Positions 3-26,361 of a stretch of 26,361 nucleotides of DNA are shown piece by piece. Under the pieces are notes generated by a model that ran no database searches, had not been told where the DNA came from, and saw only the letters and a program-made list of their open reading frames with translations. The translations under genes and the position numbers were made by a program. Source of the stretch: Bacteroidota bacterium (GTDB lineage: Bacteria > Bacteroidota > Bacteroidia > CAILMK01). Location of the stretch: contig JABDEJ010000028.1 in NCBI GenBank assembly GCA_013287095.1, positions 1-26,361 of the forward strand, given 5' to 3'. Position 1 is the stretch's first letter, and the number at the start of each line of letters is the position of its first letter.

Positions 3-476
3 ACAAATTTTGCCAATGGTGAAGTTGATAAGATTGTAGAATTTGAATACAACGAAACAGGCTTATGTACCAGGGAAACACATACCATTACTGAAAGGAA
101 TGCCATGGAAATTGTAGAATACTCTTACAATGAACTTGGGAAAAGAACTACGTCAATAACCAAGGATCAGACGGGGGATGTGATTGGCTACCTTGAAGTT
201 GAGTATGATGAAAAAATGAACCCGGTGAAATATTTGAACGAAACTTCAGGCTTTTATAACAGCAAATCGATTCACCAGGTCGTTTATGATGACCAGGGCC
301 GGACAATTGAAAACGAGTATTTTGACATCCTTAACAATTTCCTGATGTCGAAGGAAAAATATGAATATGATGAGGACGGAAATATCGTGGAGGAAGAAAT
401 ATTTGAAACCAACCCTATGGCCGGCTTAAAAAAGACCCATTACAGGTTGAAGATTGAGTATGATTTTTACGGGTAA
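3..476 (+). CDS. YD-like repeat protein, 3' end only
   Basis: The frame is open from the first bases and ends at TAA 474-476, so the start lies upstream of the window; 157 residues are visible plus the stop. An internal Met codon at 105 is not the likely start because the same repeat pattern continues upstream of it. The protein is built of roughly 20-30 residue units with aromatic-acidic signatures such as FEYNETG, YSYNELG, VEYDEKM, VVYDDQG and YEYDEDG, which resemble the beta-strand/turn units of YD/RHS-like or similar antiparallel repeat proteins. No toxin domain, RHS core cleavage motif or membrane segment is visible in this part. Function unknown; a secreted or surface-located beta-rich repeat protein is a reasonable inference. 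It is separated from the sigma factor gene by 109 bp that contain a candidate promoter, so the two are probably not one operon. Confidence 0.7.
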   Translation, partial: TNFANGEVDKIVEFEYNETGLCTRETHTITERNAMEIVEYSYNELGKRTTSITKDQTGDVIGYLEVEYDEKMNPVKYLNETSGFYNSKSIHQVVYDDQGRTIENEYFDILNNFLMSKEKYEYDEDGNIVEEEIFETNPMAGLKKTHYRLKIEYDFYG

Positions 477-511
477 ATGTATCTTTTTCAAAAAAATCCC
501 GTTAACTTTCC

Positions 512-540
512 AACCAATTGGCTTGCGCTGTCGTCTTATA
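512..540 (+). promoter_or_regulatory. Candidate ECF-type promoter of the sigma factor operon
   Basis: AAC at 512-514 and CGTC at 532-535 are separated by 17 nt, which matches the AAC / CGTC pattern common to many ECF sigma factor promoters. The sequence continues as CGTCTTATA. Transcription would begin near 541-543, leaving a leader of about 43 nt before the ATG at 586. ECF operons often autoregulate, so recognition by the product of the downstream gene is inferred. A second AAC at 504-506 is spaced too far away. Confidence 0.4.
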
Positions 541-585: not shown

Positions 586-1158
586 ATGGCGATTAACAAT
601 TTGGTCCAGGAAAAGGAACTCATAAGAGGTTGTCTCCGCAAAGACCGGCGTTGCCAGAAACTGCTGTTTGAAAAATATTTCCCTGACATGATGGCGATAT
701 GTATGCGCTATTCGAGAGACCGTGACGATGCCAAGGATATTTTGCAGGATTCTTTTATTAAGGTATTCTCAAAATTCGACTTATTTACCGGAGACGGAAC
801 GATAAAAGGATGGATACAAAGTATTGTGATCCGCACCGCCATAGATCATTACCGGAAACAACAAAGAGAGCATAAAAACATTGTTTCAGAAGAAGATTAT
901 TGGGAAAACGGAGAGAATGCCGAAATTGAAGCAGACCTGGCGGCAGAGGAAATTGTGAAAATCATCCAGACTTTACCTCATCTCCAGAGAACGGTATTCA
1001 ACTTGTTTGCCATTGAAGGCTATTCGCATAAAGAGATTGCCGACGAACTGGAAATAACTGAGGGCACCTCAAAATGGTACCTGTGTGAAGCCAGAAAAAC
1101 CCTAAAGCAGATACTTGCACCTGTATATGATCAAAAAGTAAAAGAGTATGCGGCTTAA
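586..1158 (+). CDS. ECF-family RNA polymerase sigma factor
   Basis: A 190-residue sigma-70 family protein of the extracytoplasmic-function class, the usual size for the group. Region 2 spans about residues 15-95, with the helix FEKYFPDMMAICMRY and the acidic DAKDILQDSFIKVF core, then GWIQSIVIRTAIDHYRK, which corresponds to region 2.4 and would contact the -10 element. Region 4 spans about 125-180, with the helix-turn-helix YSHKEIADELEITEGTSKWYL for -35 recognition. It would direct RNA polymerase to a small regulon when freed from its anti-sigma factor. Its last 11 bp overlap the start of the next gene, which carries an anti-sigma-like N-terminus, so the pair is very likely co-translated and cognate. 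The ATG at 586 is the first in frame after a nearby upstream stop and lies about 43 nt downstream of the predicted start site. It resembles the SigP-like sigma factors of T9SS bacteria, but orthology is not established from sequence alone. Confidence 0.93.
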   Translation: MAINNLVQEKELIRGCLRKDRRCQKLLFEKYFPDMMAICMRYSRDRDDAKDILQDSFIKVFSKFDLFTGDGTIKGWIQSIVIRTAIDHYRKQQREHKNIVSEEDYWENGENAEIEADLAAEEIVKIIQTLPHLQRTVFNLFAIEGYSHKEIADELEITEGTSKWYLCEARKTLKQILAPVYDQKVKEYAA

Positions 1159-2656
1159 GAGTCTGGATAAATATATCAAGGATAAGGTTCAGGGTTATAA
1201 AGCCCCTTACCAGGAAGACCTTTGGAAGGGTATTGAGGAAAAGCTGCCTGCGCCACGTGTACCAAATGGATATGGTTCATGGATGCTCCCTGTAGCGGCA
1301 ATAGTTGCGATTGCCATATTAGCGCCCTTCACCATTAAGTTTTATAATCTTACGGGGAGAACCCAGGTAGCAGTTCTTAAAAATAACGAAATCACCAAAT
1401 CAAAAAGTGAAATTGCATCGAATGGCAATAATGCTATAATTTCATCGTCGAAACCCAGCCTCGCTATCACTTCGATGTTATCTCCTGACGGACTGAAAAC
1501 CAGAAAAGTTGGTCATTTCAGACAAACGGCCAGGAATTCTAAAAGCGATTCAAAACATAATTTCGGAATTGAGAAAAGCGTCATTTCAGATGAAACTGTA
1601 TCCTTACCACAGCAGATCATTCAAACAACGGCAGTCGCTTCTAACAGTGAAAGTGCTTCCAAAAATGAAATGATGGCATATATTATGCCGGGTTTTTCTA
1701 CTATTGAAAATGGTGGATCCGGAGACATAAGTGATGCCAGTGATACAAAGTACCTAGACAGGAAGAATCCTCATCCGATAAACAACCAAAAATGGGAAAA
1801 CTGGCAAAGTATTTATTATGCTTTCTGGGATAATCCTGCTTATGCTGGTTCTGAGGGGAAAGTAAATATTTCAGCTGATTATAAAATAGATAATAGCATT
1901 GGAACTGTAACACCCAGTTCACAGCATACCTATAGTAACCTGGGCATTGATGGCTATATCCCCGGACTGGGGCTAGGAGTTGGCTTATATAAGGTTAGTG
2001 AGCTATCACCTTTTTCATTACAAAACACTTATGGGCTGGCGGTATCGAAATCGATTCTGCAATTGGGTTCTACAAGTGTCAAGATAGGCGTTTCTGGCAC
2101 TGCCATTGACAATAATTTCTTTTTTAGTCAGCTTAATTATTCAGACCAGATCAATCCAAAGTTTGGGTTTATAAATGCAACAAGTGAAAAGTATATCGAA
2201 GGCACTACCAGGGCCCTGGGATTAAATGCCGGCCTATGGGTAAGTAATCCCCATATTATTGCCGGTTTTGATGTTCAGGATATCAACCAGCCAAAACTCG
2301 GCATTTCAACTGATGCGCTTGCCCTCGATAGGCAATGGCGGGGAACTTTTGGATACAGGTTTGCCCCAACACCTGATTTGCAAATTATGCCGATGGCGAT
2401 AATTACCAGTGAAAGCAAGGTAAACCAGGTAAATACCATGTTGACAGCCGTTTATAAAGACAAATACATGCTGTCTTTTGCATACGGGAATATTGATCCG
2501 ATCTCCGGGCTTGGTAATACTTATGTATATGGTGCAGCGAGAATCGCAAAAAGAGTGCGTGTTTTTGCATCTTATGGTCTTAATTTAGACCTATTGCATA
2601 GAGATATCAATGAAACTTTTGTGCAAGCTGGGGTCAAAGTGCTTGTATTAAGATAA
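1148..2656 (+). CDS. Anti-sigma-like / transmembrane / PorP-SprF barrel fusion
   Basis: A 502-residue protein with three distinct parts. Residues 1-44 are short, charged and cytoplasmic-like (LDKYIKDKVQGY, then EDLWKGIEEKL), a pattern common in the N-termini of Bacteroidota proteins encoded just after ECF sigma genes. Residues 45-65 form one hydrophobic helix (WMLPVAAIVAIAILAPF). Residues 67-214 are a polar Ser/Asn/Lys-rich linker. From about 215 to the end lies a PorP/SprF-family domain, with the WQSIYYAFWDNPAYAG signature at 219-234 and a long run of alternating beta-strands to the C-terminus. There is no cleavable signal peptide, so one chain may cross the inner membrane, span the periplasm and insert in the outer membrane. 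This is the layout of the dual membrane-spanning anti-sigma factors described in Bacteroides. It overlaps the sigma gene by 11 bp and lies 5 bp before the sorting-domain gene. The anti-sigma role is inferred from position and layout. Confidence 0.8.
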   Translation: MRLKSLDKYIKDKVQGYKAPYQEDLWKGIEEKLPAPRVPNGYGSWMLPVAAIVAIAILAPFTIKFYNLTGRTQVAVLKNNEITKSKSEIASNGNNAIISSSKPSLAITSMLSPDGLKTRKVGHFRQTARNSKSDSKHNFGIEKSVISDETVSLPQQIIQTTAVASNSESASKNEMMAYIMPGFSTIENGGSGDISDASDTKYLDRKNPHPINNQKWENWQSIYYAFWDNPAYAGSEGKVNISADYKIDNSIGTVTPSSQHTYSNLGIDGYIPGLGLGVGLYKVSELSPFSLQNTYGLAVSKSILQLGSTSVKIGVSGTAIDNNFFFSQLNYSDQINPKFGFINATSEKYIEGTTRALGLNAGLWVSNPHIIAGFDVQDINQPKLGISTDALALDRQWRGTFGYRFAPTPDLQIMPMAIITSESKVNQVNTMLTAVYKDKYMLSFAYGNIDPISGLGNTYVYGAARIAKRVRVFASYGLNLDLLHRDINETFVQAGVKVLVLR

Positions 2657-2661
2657 TTGCC

Positions 2662-3024
2662 ATGAGACTTTATTATTTTATAATAATATTGGGACTGGCT
2701 GCAAATTATGGATGCACCAAACCGGGTGATGTGTTGCCGGCAAATATGCCACAACTATTTGTTCCGACGGCATTTACACCAAATGGCGATCATATTAACG
2801 ATACATTTTTAATAAAAGCTTCAGCACCTCTTACTTACTATCATATTGCTATTTATGATAATAATAATGTAATGGTGTACCAGGGCAGTAACATTTTGTC
2901 AGGTTGGGATGGGAATTACAAGGATGAACCACAGCCCATCGGTAGTTATCTTTGGGTGATCAACTACCAGGCAGAAGGAACAACGGTGGCTCAAATGAGT
3001 GGCTGGCTGGAATTGATAAGGTGA
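2662..3024 (+). CDS. Short secreted protein consisting of a T9SS type B sorting domain
   Basis: A 120-residue protein. Residues 1-18 are a hydrophobic export signal (MRLYYFIIILGLAANYGC); the Cys at 18 preceded by Gly suggests a lipoprotein, although the lipobox NYGC is atypical. After a spacer of about 13 residues, the rest is a nearly complete type B C-terminal sorting domain (gliding-motility C-terminal family). It begins FVPTAFTPNGDHINDTF, continues with the YHIAIYDNNNVMVYQG strand pair and a GWDGNYKDEPQPIGSYLWVI segment, and ends in a final strand. Normally this domain sits at the end of a large cargo and directs it through T9SS; here there is no cargo. It follows the PorP/SprF fusion by 5 bp. 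SprF-like proteins are known partners of type B cargo, so it may be the ligand of the neighbouring barrel. Confidence 0.8.
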   Translation: MRLYYFIIILGLAANYGCTKPGDVLPANMPQLFVPTAFTPNGDHINDTFLIKASAPLTYYHIAIYDNNNVMVYQGSNILSGWDGNYKDEPQPIGSYLWVINYQAEGTTVAQMSGWLELIR

Positions 3025-3045
3025 GGCACTTTATCAAACTTTTCT
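3013..3045. terminator. Bidirectional hairpin terminator between convergent genes
   Basis: TTGATAAGGTG (3013-3023) pairs with CACTTTATCAA (3027-3037) across a 3-nt loop, with one G-U pair, and a T-rich stretch (CTTTTCTT) follows. It overlaps the stop codon of the sorting-domain gene and the last codons of the minus-strand acetyltransferase gene, so it can serve both transcripts. Confidence 0.55.
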
Positions 3046-3534
3046 TCCCATAATCATCAAATCTCTTTCAACATCATCGAGCACTGCCACTCCTGGGAAA
3101 TGCCCCCAAGGCTCAAAGCCATATTTCCTGAAAAGATTAATGCTTGGTGCATTATGACCGAAAATAAAGCCAAGCAGATTTTTAATATCAAGCCTTTTGC
3201 AGTCATTGATCGCCTTTTCAAGCAGTTTTTGGCCTATTCCTTTGCCTTGTTCAGCCTTTGTGATATAGATGCTTACTTCGGCGGTATGCCTATATGCGGG
3301 CCGACCGTAGAAGGATTGAAAACTTGTCCAGGCGATGATTTTTCCGTCCTCTTCAACCACCCAAAGCGGACGGGTATCGGGATTATGGGCTTCAAACCAG
3401 GCGCGTTTGCTTTCAACAGTTACGGGTTCCAGATCAGCTGTAACCATCCTGCCCTCAATTGTTTCGTTATAAATGGAAACGATAGCCGGTAGGTCCTCGA
3501 TAGTTGCTTCTCTGACTTTTAGATCGGTGAGCAA
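3034..3534 (-). CDS. GNAT N-acetyltransferase, phosphinothricin acetyltransferase-like
   Basis: A 166-residue protein with the full GNAT fold. It starts with VREATIEDLPAIVSIYNETI, typical of the PAT (phosphinothricin/methionine sulfoximine acetyltransferase) subgroup. The acetyl-CoA binding motif A is EQGKGIG at 95-101, and motif B is NAPSINLFRKYGF at 128-140, followed by GHFPGVAVLDDVERDL, also PAT-like. It would transfer an acetyl group from acetyl-CoA to a small amine such as an amino-acid analogue; the real substrate cannot be read from sequence. The start is a TTG at 3534: no ATG lies between it and the in-frame stop just upstream, and the first internal Met is residue 30, inside the fold. 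The gene follows the acyl-CoA synthetase gene by 35 bp on the same strand and may be co-transcribed with it. The gap is almost pure A/T. Confidence 0.88.
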   Translation of the reverse strand: MLTDLKVREATIEDLPAIVSIYNETIEGRMVTADLEPVTVESKRAWFEAHNPDTRPLWVVEEDGKIIAWTSFQSFYGRPAYRHTAEVSIYITKAEQGKGIGQKLLEKAINDCKRLDIKNLLGFIFGHNAPSINLFRKYGFEPWGHFPGVAVLDDVERDLMIMGRKV

Positions 3535-16271: not shown

Positions 16272-16641
16272 CACGGGGGAATTGAAAACCGAACCCACTC
16301 GAGAATGGACCATAACAAACTGCTTCACTTGTCAAAATACAGCCAGATACTGCGTATTTGCCTGATTACCACTTGGAAAAGTTGTTATGGATCGGGACGA
16401 GTAGTATAACAGGAAACAGGATCATAACACACATAGACGAAGTATGCATGTATTTTACATGTCCTTTTATTCTGTAAATGACGATAACGGCGGGCTCCAA
16501 AAGCCTTCCTTCGTAATTAATTTTGACGGCACCTCGCCGTCTGTTCTTGTTTATACCCATTTCGGGCACATCAAATCAAACTGCATTATTTAAGCAAAGA
16601 TGAATATATACCTAAAATTACACAACAAAATTAACCTAGAC

Positions 16642-19600
16642 ATGAGTAAGTATTACAGGCATTTTAAAATCTCCAGGACCGGGAAGCACGTATTGGCAAG
16701 TTTATTTGCCATGCTTTGTGTTCTAAGCGCAAGTGCACAATGGACCGTTAATACACTTAACAGTACAGGAGGCTCTGGCTTTAGTGGTTCCTTTGATTAC
16801 TGTATTAACAATGCACAAGCGGGAGACGAAATAGATTTTAGCGTCACGGGTACCATCTCTCTTCCTCATGATGAGATTGTATCACAAAAAAATGTGTATA
16901 TTAATGGTACATCTGCTCCCGGCTATTCGAGTACTCCCTTAGTACAGCTCGATGGGTTAACATACTCAGTGGATTTCGGACTTAATGTCAATGGGTCAGG
17001 TATTAGAGTTGTCGGGATGGCTTTTACAAATTTTACAAAGTATGGTTTGTATATTACCCAGGACAATGTGAAAATACAGTCTTGCTATATTGGTATAGAT
17101 ATAGGCACCGGCAACGACTCTGCATCGGCTACAGGTATATATATTAATGGTAGGTCTGGTACCGTTATAGGTGGTAATTCTACTACTTTAAGGAATTACA
17201 TCATTGCAGGTCCCCACACTACTGGTTCTACCGGTATGGGAATTTACCTGGCGAATAATGGCCTCACCTCTGGTACCACAGCCTCTAACATCCAGAATAA
17301 TTATATCGGTGTGAATCTGGCAGGCGCTGCCGCTTTAGGTGGCCAGTATTGGGGCGTATATATGGATAGTGTAAGTAATGGTAATACCCTTAATACAAAT
17401 CTCATCAGCGGTTGCGCGACAGACGGTGTGTATATGGGGGCCGACCTTAATGTACTTTATAATAATACCATCGGTATGAATGCCGCTGGTAGTGGCCCAA
17501 TTCCAAACGGGATTGGTGTTTACATTATCAATTCTTCTGAAAAAGTGGGTGCACTTGGTCTTGGAAACTGGATATCGGGAAACACGAATGAAGGTATATA
17601 TATAGAAGGTAGCGCAGGTGGCGGTGACAATACCGTAATAGATAATATCATTGGTCTTAATAGCTCGGGTACAACCGCTGTTCCGAATGGTGGCAACGGT
17701 ATCACGATTGCCCACACCCTCGGTGGCGCACCTACATCTAATGTGATCGGTGGTATAGATCCGGGTTTTGTTGATGCGAACTATATTTCAGGAAATGGCG
17801 GTGCAGGTATTGCTTTGGTTGCCACCGTCGGCAATTCCATCCAGGGGAATACCATCGGACTTAACGAAGCCGGTAATACAATAAGAGCCAATAGCGGCAG
17901 TGGGATAACCATTGATAATCTCAGTAACCACAATACCATTGGCGGTAGCTCACCGGGTGGCAATACTATATCTGGAAACGGAATTTATGGTGTATACGTA
18001 GGTGGATCAAATAATACGGTTTCTTATAATAATATAGGATTAAATAGTAGCCAGGGGGGCTCTTTGGGAAATACTTCCGATGGGGTTTTTGTAGATGGCA
18101 GAAACAGTGGCACCCCGGTTATAGGAACGATCATCACTGATAACTGGATATCCAGGAATGGCGGCAATGGTATATACATAAGAGGTAAGTATGCCACGCC
18201 AACCACTATTTTAGCAAACGTGATAGGATCAAATATTGGCAATACCAAAGCGCCGAATTTAAAGAACGGTATAAAAGTACAATCATCACACATAACCATT
18301 GGTGGTACTTCTTCTTCTTCTACCAACACCATCAGTGGTAATGATTCAGACGGTATATACCTAGACAGTGTTACAGATATTAATGTTATCGGTAACTATA
18401 TAGGCGTTGACCAGTTTGGTACGGGCGCTGTCGGTAATAGCCTTGACGGTATTCGCCTGGAGCATGACTCATCCATCAACATTGGGAATGGAAGCAGCAA
18501 TGTCATCAGCGACAATGGCGGTTACGGTATATATGTATTGGGAAAACAGGATACCATCGAAAACAACATCATAGGCCTTGATATCAGCTCGGCTAATTTT
18601 GGTAATAGCTTTAACGGTATATATGTAGATGGAACGCTATCCCCTATACGTTCTTCGTACACATATATTAATGGAAATACCATCAGCGCCAACGGGATTG
18701 ATGGTATAGGCCTCAATGGCCCGAGGGCGGATTCCGCCACCATAACCGGGAATACAATCGGTATGGATATCAGTGGTACCACAGCTCACGCAAATGGAGC
18801 TTATGGTGTTAACATTAATTCAGTAGCTAATATTATAGGAGGTGCCCCCGCCGGCCGAAATTATATTTCGGGAAATACGGCAGCAGGTATCCAGATCCAG
18901 GTTGCAGGGAAAAACACGATCAAGAGCAACTTTATCGGTTTGAATACTGCCGGTAATGCGGCTGTTGCCAACCATAGTAATGGTATCGTATTACTTTCTG
19001 CATCCGGTGGAGTTGTTATTGGTGATAACAGCGGATCAGATGGAAACTATATTTCCGGTAATGTCGGTGATGGTATCCTTATCGCAGGAGGAAGTGGAAT
19101 TGACAGTATCAATGGAAACTTTATCGGGATCGATGAGGCCAGCGGTTCCGCTTTGATACCTAATACGGCCAATGGTATCAACGTTTTTAGTAGCGGCAAG
19201 ATGAGGATCGGTACCACTGGTGGCGCACCCAATGTTATTTCAGGCAATGGTGGGAATGGTATTTACCTGGAAGTTGCTGCTGGTGCTGATACCATTTTCA
19301 ATAATTATATTGGTTTGTCGAGAGACGGGAGTAGCAATGCGGGCAATACCGGAAATGGTATCTTTATTAACAATAGCAATGGCGATGTCATCGGCGATAC
19401 ATTAACCGGGGGACAGAACTATATTTCAGGCAACCACCAGTACGGTATCAATATAAACACAGGACAAAACTTCATCAATGGCAACTATATAGGTTTAAAC
19501 CATGCAGCTACCACAGCAGAGCCAAATCTTGTTGGCGGTATTTTTGCAAATACGGCTGGCAACAAGATTGGTTATGGTACCTTGTCAGAAAGGGCTACCG

Positions 19601-22600
19601 GTTCGCGTCCAAAATTGTTCGTTTCAGGGAATACAGGTGTTCCGGGTATTTTGATCAATGCCAGTAATAACCTCGTTCAACATGCAGTTATTGGTGCCAA
19701 TGGCGTGATAACAACAGCTGTTGCCAACAGCATTGGTGTAGAAATAGAAGGTTCTTCAACGAGCGATACCATCGGTGGAACAACGGCCCTTAAGCAAAAC
19801 ATTATTTCAGGAAACTCTGGAGGAGGTATTTTGGTAACGGGTACTGCCAATAAAAACTTTATTATTGGAAACGTAATCGGGGCAAGTTCGTCTGCAGCAA
19901 CATTAGCTATTGGAAATTTCTACGGGATCGAATTTCTTAGTACTTCTGTACTTGGCAACCATATCGGTGGCAAGGCGACCGATTCAATGAATATTATTTC
20001 GGGCAATACCAACGATGGTATTGCATTAGCGGATGTGGGGCATGACACTATTTTAAACAACTATATTGGTGTCAATGGTGCCGGGACAGGTACCCTGAGC
20101 AACGGCCTTATTGGTATTTATATAAATAGCGATGCCAACCTGATAGGAGAGCGCGGTTGGGGAAATATCGTTTCCGGTAACACGGGAGGTGGGATACAAG
20201 TTAACGGAGGGGCTTCAAATATCATTGACTCAAACTATATTGGAACAAATGCAGCAGGTTCAAGTGCACTTGGCAACGGTTCTGGCGCGGGTATAGCTAT
20301 TACAGGTGCGGCAACTACTACTATTATTGAACGAAACCTCATTTCAGGTAACAGTGTTGCCGGGATTCACCAAAGTGTGGGTTCATCTACTATTACAGCT
20401 AACTTTATCGGTACAGACATTTTAGGTGCCAGCCGTCTTCCAAATGCAAATGGTATTGATATGGATGGAACCGCCAACAATGTTATCATTGGAGGCAGTA
20501 TCAAGCCTGGTGTCAGAAATGTTATTTCCGGAAACAATGGAGATGGTATTGTGGATGCTGCCGGTACTCCTTCAGGTGGTACGGTAACCATTACAGGGAA
20601 TTTTGTCGGTTTGAGCTCATCTGGTGTTGCAGCGCTTTTTAATGCCCATGGAATTGAATTACTGAACACTAATGGAACTGCCACGATTGGTGGCAACACC
20701 AAATCTGTGCGTAACTATATATCCGGAAACCAAGCGCAAGGTATTCTTATTGAAAGTGGCACACCTGTTATTACGGGCAATTTTATTGGCACTGATACTA
20801 CGGGTATTGCTGCAACAGGTACAGGTAATAGTACTGGTGTAGACGTTGAAGCTGGTACAAATGTGGTTATCGGTGGTTTAGCAGCAGGTGATACCAACGT
20901 AATATCTGGAAATACAAGTGCCGGCGTGTATATAAATACAAGCAACGTAACTGTAGAGAATAATTTTATCGGGGTAGATTCTACCGGTAATGTAAACCTT
21001 GCACATGCTGTTACAAATAATATACAAATTATTAGCGGTACAGGTAATGTTATCGGCGGAACAACATTCAGTGCCAGAAATGTTATCGGCGGCGTAAGCG
21101 GCGGTTCTGGCGTTAATATCGCTGGTGGCGCAGCTACCGTTGAGGGCAATTATATCGGTTGGGGCGATAATGGCAAAACAGCATTAAGCGGGTTTCATGG
21201 TGTATCAAGCCAGGCATCAGGAGCTGTACTCATTGGTGGTACGGTATTGAAAGCCAGGAACTATATAGCAAATCAAACTACCAATATAAAAATTGATGCG
21301 GGCTCTTCTAATACAATAGAAGGCAATTATATCGGTCTACACGTAAATGGGAAGGGCGTTACACCTTCGAGCATTACAAGCGGTGTAGGTATTCAGCTTA
21401 ATGGTGGAACAACAACTGTAGGTGGTACATCGGCAGCTGATGCAAACTGGATATCCTCAAATGATTCTAATGGTATATTAATATCAGGTGGTAGTTCAGG
21501 CAACCAGATCTACGGAAACGTTATCGGACGTGATTCACTTGGAGATACCGCCGCAAACAGCAGCGGTATCTATATAGCCAATGGTAATAATAACCTTATC
21601 GGTAATGGTTCTGCTACAGGGGCTGATACCATTGCGGATAATATTGGCGCAGGTGTTGTCGTTATGGTAGGGACAGGAAATACTATCGAAGCAAACAATA
21701 TATTTGACAATGATGCCGATAAGCATCATGGCGGTATTGACCTAAACAACGATGGTGTGACTCAAAACCAGTTGGGGAGTACAGCTTCAGGGCCAAATGA
21801 TTATGATAACTTCCCGATATTGAAGAGTTATATATATACGCCGCCCGTGATAGCCCCTCCGACTCCGTCACAAAACCAAATAAATTTTCAGATGATAGTT
21901 CCGACATCACAGGCAGGAAACTATCGGATTGATTTTTACTCAAATAATGATCTCGATCCACTTTTATATGGAGAAGGAGCTATCTGGATTGGCTCAACGA
22001 CTGTAAGTGCATCTAATGCGGCTACGATATACACCACTACTTTTGTTGGTGGTGGCCCGTATAGTTCCGTCAGCGCTACAGCAACGAATCTTGTTGGTTT
22101 TAGTACTGATGGTACCACCGGAAACACATCTGAGTTTTCAAAAACCCTTTATCCTCAGTTCCAGTTATCAACTGAGGTACCTGAGTTCCCACACCATGGT
22201 GTCCCAGGGGTTCAGGTTGTCATTCCAAATAATCCATCTCCAATAGTTCCATCCGATCATGCATTTTTCCATGACTCAACCTATATCGGCGCTCCGGTTT
22301 CACGTAAAGTATATGTACAAAATATAGGAGGTGATGTTCTTGATATCATAGACACATCTTCCCACATGCTTACAAAAGCCAATGCAGAATATACATTTAC
22401 AGATTCTGCCAGTAGTTCATTACAATATCCTAGCTTGACGCCATCTGCTTATGCACAACCTCCTTTCCAATTAGATGAAGATGGTTCCCACGCAGATAGT
22501 TTTATCTATACCCTTAAAGCTACCGCTACCGGCATTACACCTGTTTCCGTTTCGGCAGGGCGAGGTGTTACCTATAATGATACCGTAAGGTTTAATCTTA

Positions 22601-25600
22601 ACCAACCTGGTGAGGCTGTCTTTAATTTCTTATTGGCAGACTGGGTAGGTTGCTGGAACAAGCAGTATGTAGATCCTATCAATGGTCATGATACCAGTAC
22701 GGGTTCTACCATGGCCAAAGCAAAGAAAACCATTCAGGCGGCTATAAATGCAGCTTGTCCTCAAGGTACCATATATCTGTATCCATTATACAGTTACAAT
22801 ACCGGGACACCGATAACAAACAAGAGCTTAACGTTTACGGCAGTGCCGGGATATCCTGCAACGGATACCCTTTATCTGAAAGACCTTACGGTGAATTCTC
22901 TGCACGATACGCTGACCTTGAATCATCCGATGAATATCAGCGATAATCTTACATTGACTGCCGGACTTGTTCTTACTACGACGACGAATATGTTGACGCT
23001 GTCATGTATTGACTCATTTTCACCAGGTTCAAGGATAACGGGTGGAGGTGACTCTGCCTTTATTGATGGTCCTGTCAGTTTCCGTACTCGTGGTACCCAC
23101 GTTGATAATGTTGTTTTGCCTCTTGGTAAGAGTGATCCTGTTACCAAAGGGAAATTTTACAGGCCAGTTACCGTTACCAATCTTGATATAACAGATGGAA
23201 GTGCAGCGGGTAACAGATTTACGGCAGAAATGTTTAATGCAGATCCACATACAGCTGCAGGTTTGACTGGCCTGAAGGTTCCGAAATTAACAAATCTGAG
23301 CTATAGCAGGTACTGGCTTATCAATCATGATCTTCCACATAATGGTACTGTGAACAGTGCAGGTGTTCATCTTTCTTTTGACGAGGATGGAAGCTTATCC
23401 AAAGGATTTGAAGGCAATGACAGTATCAATGACATGACCAATATTACGATATTGAAAGGAACTGATTCAGGAACCTGGACAAGTCTTGGCGCAACTCCTG
23501 TGGATTATACACTTTTAGGAGCTCCTTATAGTGGTTACTACAGTGGAGATGTTGCTTCCATAAACGACTTCAGTTCGTTCAGTCCATTTGCAATTGGAAC
23601 AGGTTGTGGGCAGGATTCACAGCCACACGTTAAATATACTTTTTCAAATGGTTGTGTAAGTACCCCAATTACCTTTACAAATAATTCAACGATCGCAGCC
23701 GGATATTATATCCAGACTTATGTATGGGATTTTGGCGACGGAACGGCTCAGGTTATAGAAAATGGAACCTATAATCCTTTAGCTCCGAACCCTGGGCCAA
23801 TAGTGCATACTTATGCCCATCCTGGAAATTATACAGTGAGCCTGATGGCTACCAGCAATAAAGGCTGCCAGGTGGTTGTTTCAAAAAATATCATTATTTC
23901 TCCGCTGCCAAATGCAACGATTATTGGAAATTATGAAGTGTGCAAAGGTTCAGCGGCCACACTTACGGTAAATGTGAGCAACATACTTACCACAGACTCA
24001 TTTAAACTTACGTATCGTTCTACTACGGCGCCTGCTACCTTAGACTCTATAAAAGGCAGGGGACCTGGTGACTATACGATCACTACTCCGGCATATACTG
24101 CTAATTCATTGGATAGCCTCGTAGCTATATTGAACAAAACAACGGGTTGTTCTCAATCATTGAGTGGTGAGAAGACAACGATCACAGTAGATCCTTTAAG
24201 TGTAGGGGGTACATCAACTGGTGCAGCTACCGTATGTTCTTCAGTCAATAGTGGCACAATAGCTCTTGGCGGTCAGACAGGTAATATACTCAACTGGCAG
24301 TCATCTATTGATGGAGGTACTACCTGGACAAATACAGGAAGTGGAAACAATCCTTATACATATACAAATCTTACACAAACCACCCAATTCAGGGCTACTG
24401 TCCAAAGCGGTGTTTGTGCTTCAACTACATCAACAGGAACTACAATAACCGTAGCACCTCTTGTAACAGGAACAATCAATGCAGGCACAACGGTTTGTGC
24501 AGGAACAGCTGCAACGCTTACCATTACAGTCGGTAACACAGGTGGGGCAAACTGGAAAGCATATTACACAGAAGGCCTGGTTGTGAAATCAACTTCAGTA
24601 ATAGCAGGTACAGCCACGTCAGCATCGATTACGACAAATACATTGGCAACTTCCACAACGGTTACCCTGGACAGTATCGTCCTTACCAGTGGAACAGATT
24701 GCAAGGCAACTATAGTAGGACCATATAATATAGCAAACGTAACGGTGAGTCCGCTGCCATTTGCAACTATTGGAAATGGATCTACCATTTGTAACGGCGG
24801 CAATGGAACTGCAACCATAACTGTATCAGATGTAGCAGCAACTGATGCATGGAGTCTTACTTATACCGTAACTGGTTTCTCAGCTTCTACATTAACAGGT
24901 ACTGGTCCAAATACGGTTTCTATTACGACCTCTACATTGGCTACCGGTACGGTACCAATTACTTTAGGTACCATAACGAATACAACAACAACTTGTAGCC
25001 AGGCATTAACCGGTGTAACTGCAACCACGAGTATTACAGTAAACGCTCCTTCATTTGGAGGAACGACCTCAGGAGCAGCGACCGTATGTTACGGAACAAA
25101 TTCTGGCAACGTAACCCTCGGCGGTTCACCAGTAGGCACAGTATTAATGTGGCAATCATCGACTAACGGTGGTACGACCTGGAGCAATATAGTTAACACG
25201 ACTACAACCCAGCCGTACAGCAACCTAACCCAAACCACGCTATATCATGCAGTGGTACAAAACGGGGCATGTGCATCCACAGTATCCACAGGAACAACAA
25301 TTACAATTGATACCTTGCCATTGGCAACGATCAATGCCGGAGCTACAATCTGTGGAAATTCAACGGCAGCGCTTACAATAACAACTACCCATACTAAGGG
25401 CGAATCATGGTCGATCACCTATACAGAAGGGACGACACCGAGAACGGTCACAGGCACAGGCGATATTACCAAGGTAATCACAACCTTAGCTTCGTCAGCC
25501 GACTCAACCGCTTCATTTAATGTAACCCTTAACGGAATCAGTCTGACTTCAGGTTCATTAAACTGTGTAAACACCTTAAACAGTGTGGCAGTAGTAACAG

Positions 25601-26361
25601 TGACCCCGCTACCATATGCAACGATCGGCTCAAACCAGACTATATGTAACGGCAGCCAGGCGAATGCAACCATCACGGTATCAGACGTAGCATCCACAGA
25701 TGCATGGAGCCTTACTTATACGGTAACAGGTTTTGCCCAATCAACATTAACAGGTGTAGGCCCGACATCGGTATCGATAACGACTTCAACGTTGGCAACA
25801 GGTAGCCCGACAATTGTATTGAACAGTATCAAGAATACCTCGACGGGCTGCGTTCAGACATTGACCCCATTGGTTGGATCAACGATTACGATCACAGTGA
25901 CCACACCTACGGTAGGTGGAACCACTGCAGGCGCAGCAACAGTATGTTACGGTGCTAACTCAGGCAACGTAACCTTGAGCGGCCAAACCGGCTCTATATT
26001 AATGTGGCAGTCATCGACCAACGGCGGTACGACCTGGAACAACATAGCCAACACGACAGCAACCCAGCCGTACAGCAACCTTACCCAGACCACCCTTTAC
26101 CAGGCAGTGGTAGAAAGTGGGGTATGCCCATCAACGGTATCTTCGGGAACGACCATTACCATAGACACCTTGCCATTGGCAACGATCAATTTAGGTACAA
26201 CTATCTGCGCGCATTCAGTTGCAGCGCTTACAATAACGACAAGCCACACCAAGGGCGAGTCATGGTCGATCACTTACACAGAAGGCACGACACCAAAAAC
26301 AGTGACAGGCACGGGCGATATTACCAAAGTGATTACGACCTCAGTATCATCGGCAGACTCC
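16642..26361 (+). CDS. Giant secreted beta-helix / PKD / Ig-like repeat protein, 3' end beyond window
   Basis: One frame runs without a stop from 16642 to the last base: 3240 codons, incomplete at the C-terminus. Residues 1-32 are a signal peptide (KHVLASLFAMLCVLSASA/Q). An earlier in-frame ATG at 16600 exists, but 16642 gives the more usual signal peptide. Residues about 34-1714 are a right-handed parallel beta-helix made of about 25 units. Residues about 1715-1840 form the domain usually following such helices, ending GNTSEFSKTL. About 1840-2000 are unrecognised, with VYVQNIGGDVLDI resembling ASH/choice-of-anchor modules. At 2006 a second motif, DPINGHDTSTGST then AKKTIQAAI, starts another lyase-like region, ending FSSFSPFAIG near 2325. 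A PKD domain follows with WDFGDG at 2362-2367 and HTYAHPGNYTV from 2389. From 2421 on, tandem Ig-like modules continue past the window. It is probably a T9SS-exported adhesin; the expected sorting domain is not in view. Confidence 0.9.
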   Translation, partial: MSKYYRHFKISRTGKHVLASLFAMLCVLSASAQWTVNTLNSTGGSGFSGSFDYCINNAQAGDEIDFSVTGTISLPHDEIVSQKNVYINGTSAPGYSSTPLVQLDGLTYSVDFGLNVNGSGIRVVGMAFTNFTKYGLYITQDNVKIQSCYIGIDIGTGNDSASATGIYINGRSGTVIGGNSTTLRNYIIAGPHTTGSTGMGIYLANNGLTSGTTASNIQNNYIGVNLAGAAALGGQYWGVYMDSVSNGNTLNTNLISGCATDGVYMGADLNVLYNNTIGMNAAGSGPIPNGIGVYIINSSEKVGALGLGNWISGNTNEGIYIEGSAGGGDNTVIDNIIGLNSSGTTAVPNGGNGITIAHTLGGAPTSNVIGGIDPGFVDANYISGNGGAGIALVATVGNSIQGNTIGLNEAGNTIRANSGSGITIDNLSNHNTIGGSSPGGNTISGNGIYGVYVGGSNNTVSYNNIGLNSSQGGSLGNTSDGVFVDGRNSGTPVIGTIITDNWISRNGGNGIYIRGKYATPTTILANVIGSNIGNTKAPNLKNGIKVQSSHITIGGTSSSSTNTISGNDSDGIYLDSVTDINVIGNYIGVDQFGTGAVGNSLDGIRLEHDSSINIGNGSSNVISDNGGYGIYVLGKQDTIENNIIGLDISSANFGNSFNGIYVDGTLSPIRSSYTYINGNTISANGIDGIGLNGPRADSATITGNTIGMDISGTTAHANGAYGVNINSVANIIGGAPAGRNYISGNTAAGIQIQVAGKNTIKSNFIGLNTAGNAAVANHSNGIVLLSASGGVVIGDNSGSDGNYISGNVGDGILIAGGSGIDSINGNFIGIDEASGSALIPNTANGINVFSSGKMRIGTTGGAPNVISGNGGNGIYLEVAAGADTIFNNYIGLSRDGSSNAGNTGNGIFINNSNGDVIGDTLTGGQNYISGNHQYGININTGQNFINGNYIGLNHAATTAEPNLVGGIFANTAGNKIGYGTLSERATGSRPKLFVSGNTGVPGILINASNNLVQHAVIGANGVITTAVANSIGVEIEGSSTSDTIGGTTALKQNIISGNSGGGILVTGTANKNFIIGNVIGASSSAATLAIGNFYGIEFLSTSVLGNHIGGKATDSMNIISGNTNDGIALADVGHDTILNNYIGVNGAGTGTLSNGLIGIYINSDANLIGERGWGNIVSGNTGGGIQVNGGASNIIDSNYIGTNAAGSSALGNGSGAGIAITGAATTTIIERNLISGNSVAGIHQSVGSSTITANFIGTDILGASRLPNANGIDMDGTANNVIIGGSIKPGVRNVISGNNGDGIVDAAGTPSGGTVTITGNFVGLSSSGVAALFNAHGIELLNTNGTATIGGNTKSVRNYISGNQAQGILIESGTPVITGNFIGTDTTGIAATGTGNSTGVDVEAGTNVVIGGLAAGDTNVISGNTSAGVYINTSNVTVENNFIGVDSTGNVNLAHAVTNNIQIISGTGNVIGGTTFSARNVIGGVSGGSGVNIAGGAATVEGNYIGWGDNGKTALSGFHGVSSQASGAVLIGGTVLKARNYIANQTTNIKIDAGSSNTIEGNYIGLHVNGKGVTPSSITSGVGIQLNGGTTTVGGTSAADANWISSNDSNGILISGGSSGNQIYGNVIGRDSLGDTAANSSGIYIANGNNNLIGNGSATGADTIADNIGAGVVVMVGTGNTIEANNIFDNDADKHHGGIDLNNDGVTQNQLGSTASGPNDYDNFPILKSYIYTPPVIAPPTPSQNQINFQMIVPTSQAGNYRIDFYSNNDLDPLLYGEGAIWIGSTTVSASNAATIYTTTFVGGGPYSSVSATATNLVGFSTDGTTGNTSEFSKTLYPQFQLSTEVPEFPHHGVPGVQVVIPNNPSPIVPSDHAFFHDSTYIGAPVSRKVYVQNIGGDVLDIIDTSSHMLTKANAEYTFTDSASSSLQYPSLTPSAYAQPPFQLDEDGSHADSFIYTLKATATGITPVSVSAGRGVTYNDTVRFNLNQPGEAVFNFLLADWVGCWNKQYVDPINGHDTSTGSTMAKAKKTIQAAINAACPQGTIYLYPLYSYNTGTPITNKSLTFTAVPGYPATDTLYLKDLTVNSLHDTLTLNHPMNISDNLTLTAGLVLTTTTNMLTLSCIDSFSPGSRITGGGDSAFIDGPVSFRTRGTHVDNVVLPLGKSDPVTKGKFYRPVTVTNLDITDGSAAGNRFTAEMFNADPHTAAGLTGLKVPKLTNLSYSRYWLINHDLPHNGTVNSAGVHLSFDEDGSLSKGFEGNDSINDMTNITILKGTDSGTWTSLGATPVDYTLLGAPYSGYYSGDVASINDFSSFSPFAIGTGCGQDSQPHVKYTFSNGCVSTPITFTNNSTIAAGYYIQTYVWDFGDGTAQVIENGTYNPLAPNPGPIVHTYAHPGNYTVSLMATSNKGCQVVVSKNIIISPLPNATIIGNYEVCKGSAATLTVNVSNILTTDSFKLTYRSTTAPATLDSIKGRGPGDYTITTPAYTANSLDSLVAILNKTTGCSQSLSGEKTTITVDPLSVGGTSTGAATVCSSVNSGTIALGGQTGNILNWQSSIDGGTTWTNTGSGNNPYTYTNLTQTTQFRATVQSGVCASTTSTGTTITVAPLVTGTINAGTTVCAGTAATLTITVGNTGGANWKAYYTEGLVVKSTSVIAGTATSASITTNTLATSTTVTLDSIVLTSGTDCKATIVGPYNIANVTVSPLPFATIGNGSTICNGGNGTATITVSDVAATDAWSLTYTVTGFSASTLTGTGPNTVSITTSTLATGTVPITLGTITNTTTTCSQALTGVTATTSITVNAPSFGGTTSGAATVCYGTNSGNVTLGGSPVGTVLMWQSSTNGGTTWSNIVNTTTTQPYSNLTQTTLYHAVVQNGACASTVSTGTTITIDTLPLATINAGATICGNSTAALTITTTHTKGESWSITYTEGTTPRTVTGTGDITKVITTLASSADSTASFNVTLNGISLTSGSLNCVNTLNSVAVVTVTPLPYATIGSNQTICNGSQANATITVSDVASTDAWSLTYTVTGFAQSTLTGVGPTSVSITTSTLATGSPTIVLNSIKNTSTGCVQTLTPLVGSTITITVTTPTVGGTTAGAATVCYGANSGNVTLSGQTGSILMWQSSTNGGTTWNNIANTTATQPYSNLTQTTLYQAVVESGVCPSTVSSGTTITIDTLPLATINLGTTICAHSVAALTITTSHTKGESWSITYTEGTTPKTVTGTGDITKVITTSVSSADS
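17085..21546 (+). repeat. About 25 coding repeats of a 62-residue beta-helix unit
   Basis: The marker N-[YFTIV]-I-G-[LVMTI]-[ND]-x-x-G recurs about 25 times between 17085 and 21520 with spacing of 160-217 bp, mean near 185 bp (62 residues, about three helix coils). Each unit also carries an N-x-I-S-G-N-x(3-5)-G-I turn and, in most, a V/T-I-G-G turn. The DNA has diverged between units, so the repeats are old and held by protein structure. Similar units occur in many large bacterial surface proteins. Confidence 0.85.
23902..26361 (+). repeat. Tandem supra-repeats of 849-855 bp encoding three Ig-like domains each
   Basis: Copies start at the PLPxATI motif at 23902, 24751 and 25606; the third is cut by the window end (756 bp seen). 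Each copy contains three domains: one with TDxWSLTYTVTG-like and ITTSTLATG motifs, one with GGTTxGAATVCYG, MWQSSTNGGTTW and PYSNLTQTTLY, and one with TICxxSxAALTITT and KGESWSITYTEG. The first and third domain types are related to each other. Copies two and three are clearly closer in DNA than either is to copy one, mostly differing at third codon positions. Confidence 0.85.

What the first reader, a model, noticed from the sequence alone, without database searches (positions are those of the whole stretch)
586..3024. Self-contained T9SS-linked signalling unit: ECF sigma, anti-sigma fused to a PorP/SprF barrel, and a lone sorting domain
Three genes overlap or nearly touch (11-bp overlap, 5-bp gap) and end at a shared hairpin. 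The first encodes an ECF sigma factor. The second joins a cytoplasmic anti-sigma-like segment, one membrane helix, a 150-residue linker and an SprF-like outer-membrane barrel. The third is a signal peptide plus a type B sorting domain. Known: SprF-like proteins act with type B cargo, and in Porphyromonas a sorting-domain protein (PorA) feeds a pathway with the sigma factor SigP. Inference: the small protein is exported and sensed by the barrel, and the state of T9SS is passed directly across both membranes to the sigma factor, without a two-component system. I cannot say whether this exact triad has been described.
Basis: partly seen in the sequence, partly recalled or inferred. Interest (0 to 1): 0.87.

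Follow-up and report, generated by a model that had tools for sequence, protein, structure and literature searches.

The report
Anti-sigma factor wired to secretion carrier
Three neighbouring genes appear to form a wire across both bacterial membranes: a gene-switching protein is held by an anchor whose outer end is a carrier of the type IX protein export machine, with a tiny export-tagged lipoprotein encoded beside it, and related arrangements recur in other Bacteroidota.

Summary
The triad is real and conserved. The fusion (anti-sigma segment, one membrane helix, variable linker, PorP/SprF barrel) is one frame in the window and in all 6 homologues found. Eight genomes of a diverged set show sigma, PorP-fused anti-sigma and CTD lipoprotein in the same order (one fusion cut by an assembly gap). 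Two sister layouts turned up: anti-sigmas that end in a type B sorting domain (5 loci), and sigma, anti-sigma and separate PorP gene in a row (6 loci). On a sigma tree 17 such sigmas form one supported clade and the window's group lies nearby. The layout is that of the known Dma (dual membrane-spanning anti-sigma) family, with a T9SS carrier as barrel. Fused barrels mostly lack the C-tail cysteines that tie SprF to the gliding track (1 of 17 have any, against 35 of 43 unfused). An ECF-type promoter stands before the sigma gene in 9 of 11 PorP-fused loci. Best reading: docking or export of the small CTD lipoprotein on its tethered carrier controls the sigma factor. Binding, export and sigma release are inferred; one motif search found no T9SS gene as target, and three related loci lack the CTD gene. 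New variant of a known kind.

The parts
511..535 (+). putative ECF promoter CAACC-N16-CGTC, upstream of the sigma gene
   Evidence: the only AACC-N15/16-CGTC match in the window, where 0.83 are expected by chance, so weak by itself; the looser AAC-N16/17-CGTC precedes the sigma gene in 9 of 11 PorP-fused loci against 0.04 expected
586..1158 (+). ECF sigma factor, 190 aa
   Evidence: Pfam Sigma70_r2 1.4e-14, Sigma70_r4_2 6.6e-14
1148..2656 (+). fusion protein, 502 aa: anti-sigma segment + TM + linker + PorP/SprF barrel
1148..1279 (+). anti-sigma segment, residues 1-44
   Evidence: profile A5, built from this and related N-termini, marks ORFs that have an ECF sigma gene beside them in 87 of 88 annotated loci, and matches a Dma-type protein of Bacteroides nordii at E 1.1e-6
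1280..1351 (+). single membrane helix, residues about 45-68
   Evidence: hydropathy peak 2.26 at residue 45, no other peak above 1.6; modelled as helix 46-73 at low confidence
1367..1831 (+). variable linker, residues about 74-228, presumed periplasmic
   Evidence: alignment A1 diverges here; pLDDT under 50 up to residue 214; 23 Ser, 13 Asn and no Trp in residues 74-214
1832..2653 (+). PorP/SprF-type outer-membrane barrel, ending at its last strand without a cysteine tail
   Evidence: PF11751 6.1e-13; Foldseek matches to FadL, OmpG and, at rank 24, a chain of the T9SS RemA-CTD complex, 8gl6_F; no Cys in the protein
2662..3024 (+). lone type B CTD protein, 120 aa, lipoprotein-like signal peptide (Cys18), CTD at residues 34-120
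   Evidence: CHU_C 8.4e-16, TIGR04131 above cut-off, conserved Cys
3013..3037 (.). hairpin between the operon and the convergent gene 3034-3534
   Evidence: fold z-score -2.6

Best explanation
A Dma-type sigma/anti-sigma pair whose outer-membrane sensor is a T9SS type B carrier. The cytoplasmic N-terminus of the fusion holds the sigma factor, one helix anchors it in the inner membrane, a linker of about 155 residues crosses the periplasm, and the C-terminal PorP/SprF-type barrel sits in the outer membrane. The small CTD lipoprotein next door is the barrel's dedicated partner. Whether the T9SS delivers that partner to the tethered carrier changes the pull on, or the proteolysis of, the anti-sigma factor and so frees or holds the sigma factor, which drives at least its own operon. 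Shown by sequence: domains, order, conservation, promoter-like site, absence of the track tail. Inferred: sigma binding, topology, carrier-partner binding, export and direction of the signal.
For: Continuous fusion in the window and 6 of 6 homologues. Sigma, fusion and CTD gene together in 8 genomes among 247 relatives of G112 searched with the fusion alone (L252 is cut by an assembly gap). In the window's own family two homologues have contig lengths equal to those of CTD homologues (16172: P0003/P0013; 18121: P0004/P0011), which suggests linkage. The sigma tree has a clade of 17 (95/88) made only of T9SS-coupled loci, and the window's clade of 4 (98/91) holds PorP loci only. Five anti-sigmas end in a type B CTD themselves (Pfam for L110; own profile for all five). 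Cognate pairing of type B CTD and neighbouring PorP/SprF carrier is experimental in F. johnsoniae (PMC12618676, passages and section 10). Cysteines such as those that bind the C-tail of SprF to GldK (PMC12635249, passages) are absent from the last 35 residues of 16 of 17 fused barrels, present in 35 of 43 unfused; p 7e-8, rows not independent.
Against: No T9SS gene was recognised behind the strict promoter motif, 22 sites against 12 in the reversed control. G128, G386 and G347 lack a CTD gene next door. PMC12618676 (passage) reports that efficient type B secretion can need up to 235 C-terminal residues; the mature window protein has about 103. Type B CTDs are abundant (14 to 67 matches per genome in 8 genomes), so a CTD neighbour is weaker evidence than it looks. 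SprA is present in 24 of 24 genomes tested, including the three with Dma-type loci, so it does not discriminate. In the evenly drawn sample the T9SS-coupled layouts are few: 3 CTD-fused, 1 PorP-next, 0 PorP-fused among 62 annotated rows of 84. The model gives no confident structure outside the barrel.
Confidence: 0.5

Rival explanations
1. Ordinary Dma protein: the PorP-type barrel was recruited as a generic outer-membrane or vesiculation sensor and no longer works with the T9SS. The CTD lipoprotein is only a regulon member.
For: Same four-part layout as Dma (PMC13088901 section 6). Of 10 long relatives scanned, out of 66 classed 'other', 9 match small OMP_b-brl barrel families at E up to 0.003 (1 above the curated cut-off) and 1 matches nothing. 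The window barrel scores below TIGR03519's cut-off and lacks the track tail. Three PorP loci of the window's sigma clade have no CTD gene next door.
Against: PorP-type barrels and type B CTDs recur with these anti-sigmas in three layouts and at least two fused-barrel groups, which a generic sensor does not predict; the CTD gene sits directly behind the fusion in 8 of 8 of the diverged set.
Confidence: 0.25
2. Surface ligand sensor: the carrier displays the CTD lipoprotein as a sensing head, and an outside ligand, not secretion state, gives the signal.
For: In the 8 diverged triads the CTD protein has about 100 extra residues before the CTD (211-218 aa in all). Among CTD-fused anti-sigmas L110 has a PKD domain by Pfam, and L183, L264 and L267 look PKD-like by eye.
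Against: In the window family the mature protein is little more than the CTD, with almost nothing left to bind a ligand.
Confidence: 0.18
3. The anti-sigma part is a tether that keeps the carrier from joining the track; regulation is secondary.
For: Fused carriers mostly lack C-tail cysteines.
Against: An ECF sigma gene lies beside the anti-sigma gene in 87 of 88 loci.
Confidence: 0.05

Closest known systems
[quoted passage not shown] PMC13088901, three sections read; the Dma1 paper seen only as a reference)
   Same: anti-sigma N-terminus, one helix, long tether, C-terminal beta-barrel, next to an ECF sigma; the window's N-terminal profile matches Dma-type proteins in Bacteroides nordii and two Proteiniphilum genomes
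   Different: the barrel is of PorP/SprF type and a type B CTD lipoprotein follows; 9 of 10 other long relatives scanned match OMP_b-brl families instead
SprF-SprB and PorP-PG1035 carrier/type B substrate pairs (PMC9143113, PMC12618676, PMC12635249; passages)
   Same: a PorP/SprF-type barrel gene beside a type B CTD gene
   Different: the barrel is fused to an inner-membrane anti-sigma factor and lacks the C-tail cysteines of SprF; the partner is almost only a CTD
PorXY-SigP/PorA regulation of T9SS in Porphyromonas (PMC7712824, passages and abstract start)
   Same: an ECF sigma linked to T9SS
   Different: works through a two-component system; PorA is not type B
FecA-FecR-FecI type cell-surface signalling; FlgM-FliA export coupling (both recalled)
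   Same: outer-membrane state or export controls a sigma factor through its anti-sigma factor
   Different: one polypeptide would span both membranes here; the machine is T9SS

Membership tests
Dma family | N-terminal anti-sigma binding segment | tested here: met
   profile A5 matches ORFs beside sigma genes in Bacteroides nordii (1.1e-6) and two Proteiniphilum genomes (8.5e-6, 2.6e-5). That these are Dma loci rests on their layout and an NigD-like neighbour named by eye. Homology only; binding not tested
Dma family | single transmembrane helix | tested here: met
   one hydropathy peak
Dma family | long disordered tether | tested here: inconclusive
   about 155 variable residues under pLDDT 50 to residue 214, but the helices are under 50 too and the alignment has 7 rows
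Dma family | C-terminal beta-barrel | tested here: met
   PF11751, model and Foldseek; barrel type differs
Dma family | encoded next to an ECF21 sigma factor | tested here: inconclusive
   sigma adjacent; no ECF21 model at hand. The sigma lies in the 85-row group (99/93) that also holds the Dma-type sigmas L282-L284, apart from the 5 outgroup rows (long branches flagged there)
Dma family | inhibits its sigma and spans both membranes | not testable with these tools
   needs experiment
PorP/SprF carrier | PorP_SprF barrel | tested here: met
   Pfam above cut-off, NCBIfam TIGR03519 below cut-off
PorP/SprF carrier | twin-cysteine periplasmic C-tail for track attachment (shown for SprF; not all unfused barrels here have it) | tested here: not met
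   no cysteine in the window protein; at least two in the last 35 residues: 1 of 17 fused, 17 of 37 standalone, 6 of 6 PorP-next
PorP/SprF carrier | carries a cognate type B substrate | not testable with these tools
   adjacency only
T9SS type B substrate | TIGR04131 / CHU_C domain at the C-terminus and a signal peptide | tested here: met
   signal peptide read from the sequence by eye
T9SS type B substrate | exported by the T9SS | not testable with these tools
   shorter than the length reported for efficient secretion of some substrates (PMC12618676, passage)

The most novel reading that the evidence does not exclude
Bacteroidota have a class of trans-envelope sigma switches in which the anti-sigma factor is itself part of type IX secretion, either as carrier (fused PorP/SprF) or as substrate (fused type B CTD), so that secretion is read directly by one polypeptide crossing both membranes.
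Probability: 0.4. Interest if true: 0.92.

Novelty: new variant of a known kind. Interest (0 to 1): 0.78.

Why it matters
To my knowledge, how cells sense whether the T9SS works is open. A carrier or a sorting domain covalently joined to an anti-sigma factor would make this testable with a transcriptional reporter, and it would extend Dma-like signalling from vesicle control to secretion.

Tried and rejected
Rejected: the fusion as an artefact of a missed stop (continuous in the window and 6 of 6 homologues). Disfavoured: one origin of the PorP fusion (sigma tree, AU p 0.007; the test assumes that the group was named before the tree was seen, which was not so; the barrel tree also gives separate fused groups, quick method). 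One clade of all 21 T9SS-coupled sigmas other than L110 is not rejected (p 0.315). Led nowhere: plasmid search, genome-contig scan with A1 (412 pattern stretches, none confirmed), own genome (not held), regulon search by strict motif, SprA as a discriminator, a look for orphan CTD partners in G128, G386 and G347 (many CTD proteins, no clear answer).

Limits: of 84 rows, 62 were fetched and annotated (60). Classification used profiles that I built from the same loci. Of 94 loci, six without an anti-sigma hit were left out. In the sigma tree L100 (sigma cut by the locus end) and L198 (no adjacent sigma) are missing, L252 was relabelled PorP-fused by hand, and L201's sigma appears twice, as 'other' and as outgroup. 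In one search three PorP-next loci (L095, L102, L103) had too little upstream sequence. In one search barrels under 180 residues, with over 20 X, or duplicated were dropped. L258 (G347) has its anti-sigma and PorP parts in two frames; one search counts it as PorP-next, searches count its barrel as 'alone'. The Fisher tests treat related rows as independent. In one search only the first 160 residues of the longest downstream ORF were printed, and one site (L294) had none.

Full report
Observation. The second is a genuine fusion: the window protein and six homologues of 38 to 75% identity run unbroken from the anti-sigma segment to the barrel, with strong conservation of residues 1-71 and of the barrel and a free linker between. 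Hydropathy shows one membrane helix. In the AlphaFold2 model only the barrel is confident; the anti-sigma helices, the membrane helix and the linker are all near or under pLDDT 50. The third gene encodes a signal peptide with a conserved terminal cysteine and hardly more than a type B CTD.

Conservation. The window's genome is not held. Searches of genomes without names gave four kinds of locus. (a) Eight genomes (G112, G145, G297, G296, G032, G298, G076, G299), out of 247 relatives of G112 searched, with ECF sigma, anti-sigma fused to a PorP barrel, and a 211-218 aa CTD protein with a lipoprotein-like signal peptide, in that order and nearly touching (the G296 fusion is cut by an assembly gap). 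Their anti-sigma part is a tandem array with two to five profile hits. (b) G128 and G386, out of 247 relatives of G128, with sigma and PorP fusion but an rsmD-like gene (by eye) on the other strand next, and G347 with the parts in two frames and no CTD gene. (c) Five loci (L110, L174, L183, L264, L267) whose anti-sigma ends in a type B CTD, four of them followed directly by a larger CTD protein. (d) Six loci with sigma, anti-sigma of 239-274 aa and a separate PorP gene (L095, L100, L102, L103, L115, L268). In a sample of 148 Bacteroidota genomes drawn evenly, 44 had a match to the N-terminal profile at E up to 0.01; of 84 rows 62 were annotated: 3 CTD-fused, 1 PorP-next, none PorP-fused, 58 other. 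So the T9SS-coupled layouts are a minority of this anti-sigma family. Over all 88 annotated loci a sigma gene is adjacent in 87.

Trees. The sigma tree (91 rows) holds a clade of 17 sigmas, all T9SS-coupled (8 PorP-fused, 5 PorP-next, 4 CTD-fused; support 95/88). The window groups with G128, G386 and G347 (98/91). Both lie in a set of 36 rows, 15 of them 'other' (98/97). L110, the fifth CTD fusion, lies elsewhere. Joining all 21 T9SS-coupled rows other than L110 in one clade is not rejected (p 0.315); joining all 11 PorP-fused is (p 0.007). The barrel tree (60 rows, quick method) also places the fused barrels in two groups, and the PorP-next barrels among ordinary PorPs.

Promoter. AAC-N16/17-CGTC stands before the sigma gene in 9 of 11 PorP-fused loci, 3 of 3 usable PorP-next, 1 of 5 CTD-fused and 11 of 64 others, against 0.04, 0.02, 0.09 and 0.37 expected from shuffles. 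The window's copy is at 512-535. In F. [quoted passage not shown] Against a T9SS feedback here: in eight genomes the strict motif gave 22 sites against 12 in the reversed control; the sigma gene itself is behind it in five genomes, and no other downstream ORF looked like a T9SS part (judged by eye from the first 160 residues).

Carrier. SprF carries its substrate SprB and is then bound to the GldK track through C-tail cysteines (PMC12635249, passages). Fused barrels mostly lack any: 1 of 17 has a cysteine in the last 35 residues (P0007, within the barrel), against 6 of 6 PorP-next and 29 of 37 standalone barrels (p 7e-8 for fused against all 43 unfused). I read this as the track anchor having been given up for an N-terminal anchor to the anti-sigma factor. 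This is inference; 8 of 37 standalone barrels lack such cysteines too.

Relation to what is known. The four-part layout matches the Dma family as described in PMC13088901 (introduction, Das2 section and discussion read), including a three-gene operon for Dma2. The N-terminal profile recognises Dma-type proteins. So this is best filed as a Dma-like variant, with ECF21 membership of the sigma and the disorder of the tether unsettled. What I did not find in print, in the listings and 93 of an open-access library (Dma1's own paper and an ECF classification paper are not held), is a PorP/SprF or CTD fusion to an anti-sigma factor.

Verdict. Anatomy and conservation: strong. Carrier-partner-sigma mechanism: plausible, untested, about even odds.

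Noticed in passing
window 16600-26361 (+): Open reading frame of at least 3254 aa running off the window's right end, a repeat-rich surface-type protein by its sequence; whether it ends in a CTD is not visible.
   Followed up: no
window about 3-476 (+) and L112:4099-5016: A YD/RHS-like repeat gene (RHS_repeat 21.3 bits, just below the cut-off of 22) lies upstream of the sigma operon in the window, open to its left edge, and in G128, although the two fusions are only 20% identical.
   Followed up: partly
L259:1954-3972 (-), L253:2644-4539 (-): Tandem arrays of the short anti-sigma motif, five profile hits in L253 and, by eye, more copies in L259 than its two hits, which might bind several sigma copies.
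   Followed up: no
L110, L183, L264, L267: Anti-sigma factors that end in a type B sorting domain, each followed by a large CTD protein.
   Followed up: partly
L301, L303, L307: Similar lipoprotein-like ORFs stand behind the GGCAACC-N-CGTC motif in three genomes (G296, G297, G145), candidate regulon members.
   Followed up: no
L282:3312-4630 (-): The Dma-type gene in Bacteroides nordii appears as two adjacent frames in this assembly.
   Followed up: no
L092, L265, L266, L269, L270: Standalone PorP barrel genes paired with 199-214 aa lipoprotein-like CTD proteins and no sigma factor in the stretch read: a possible source of the fused module.
   Followed up: partly
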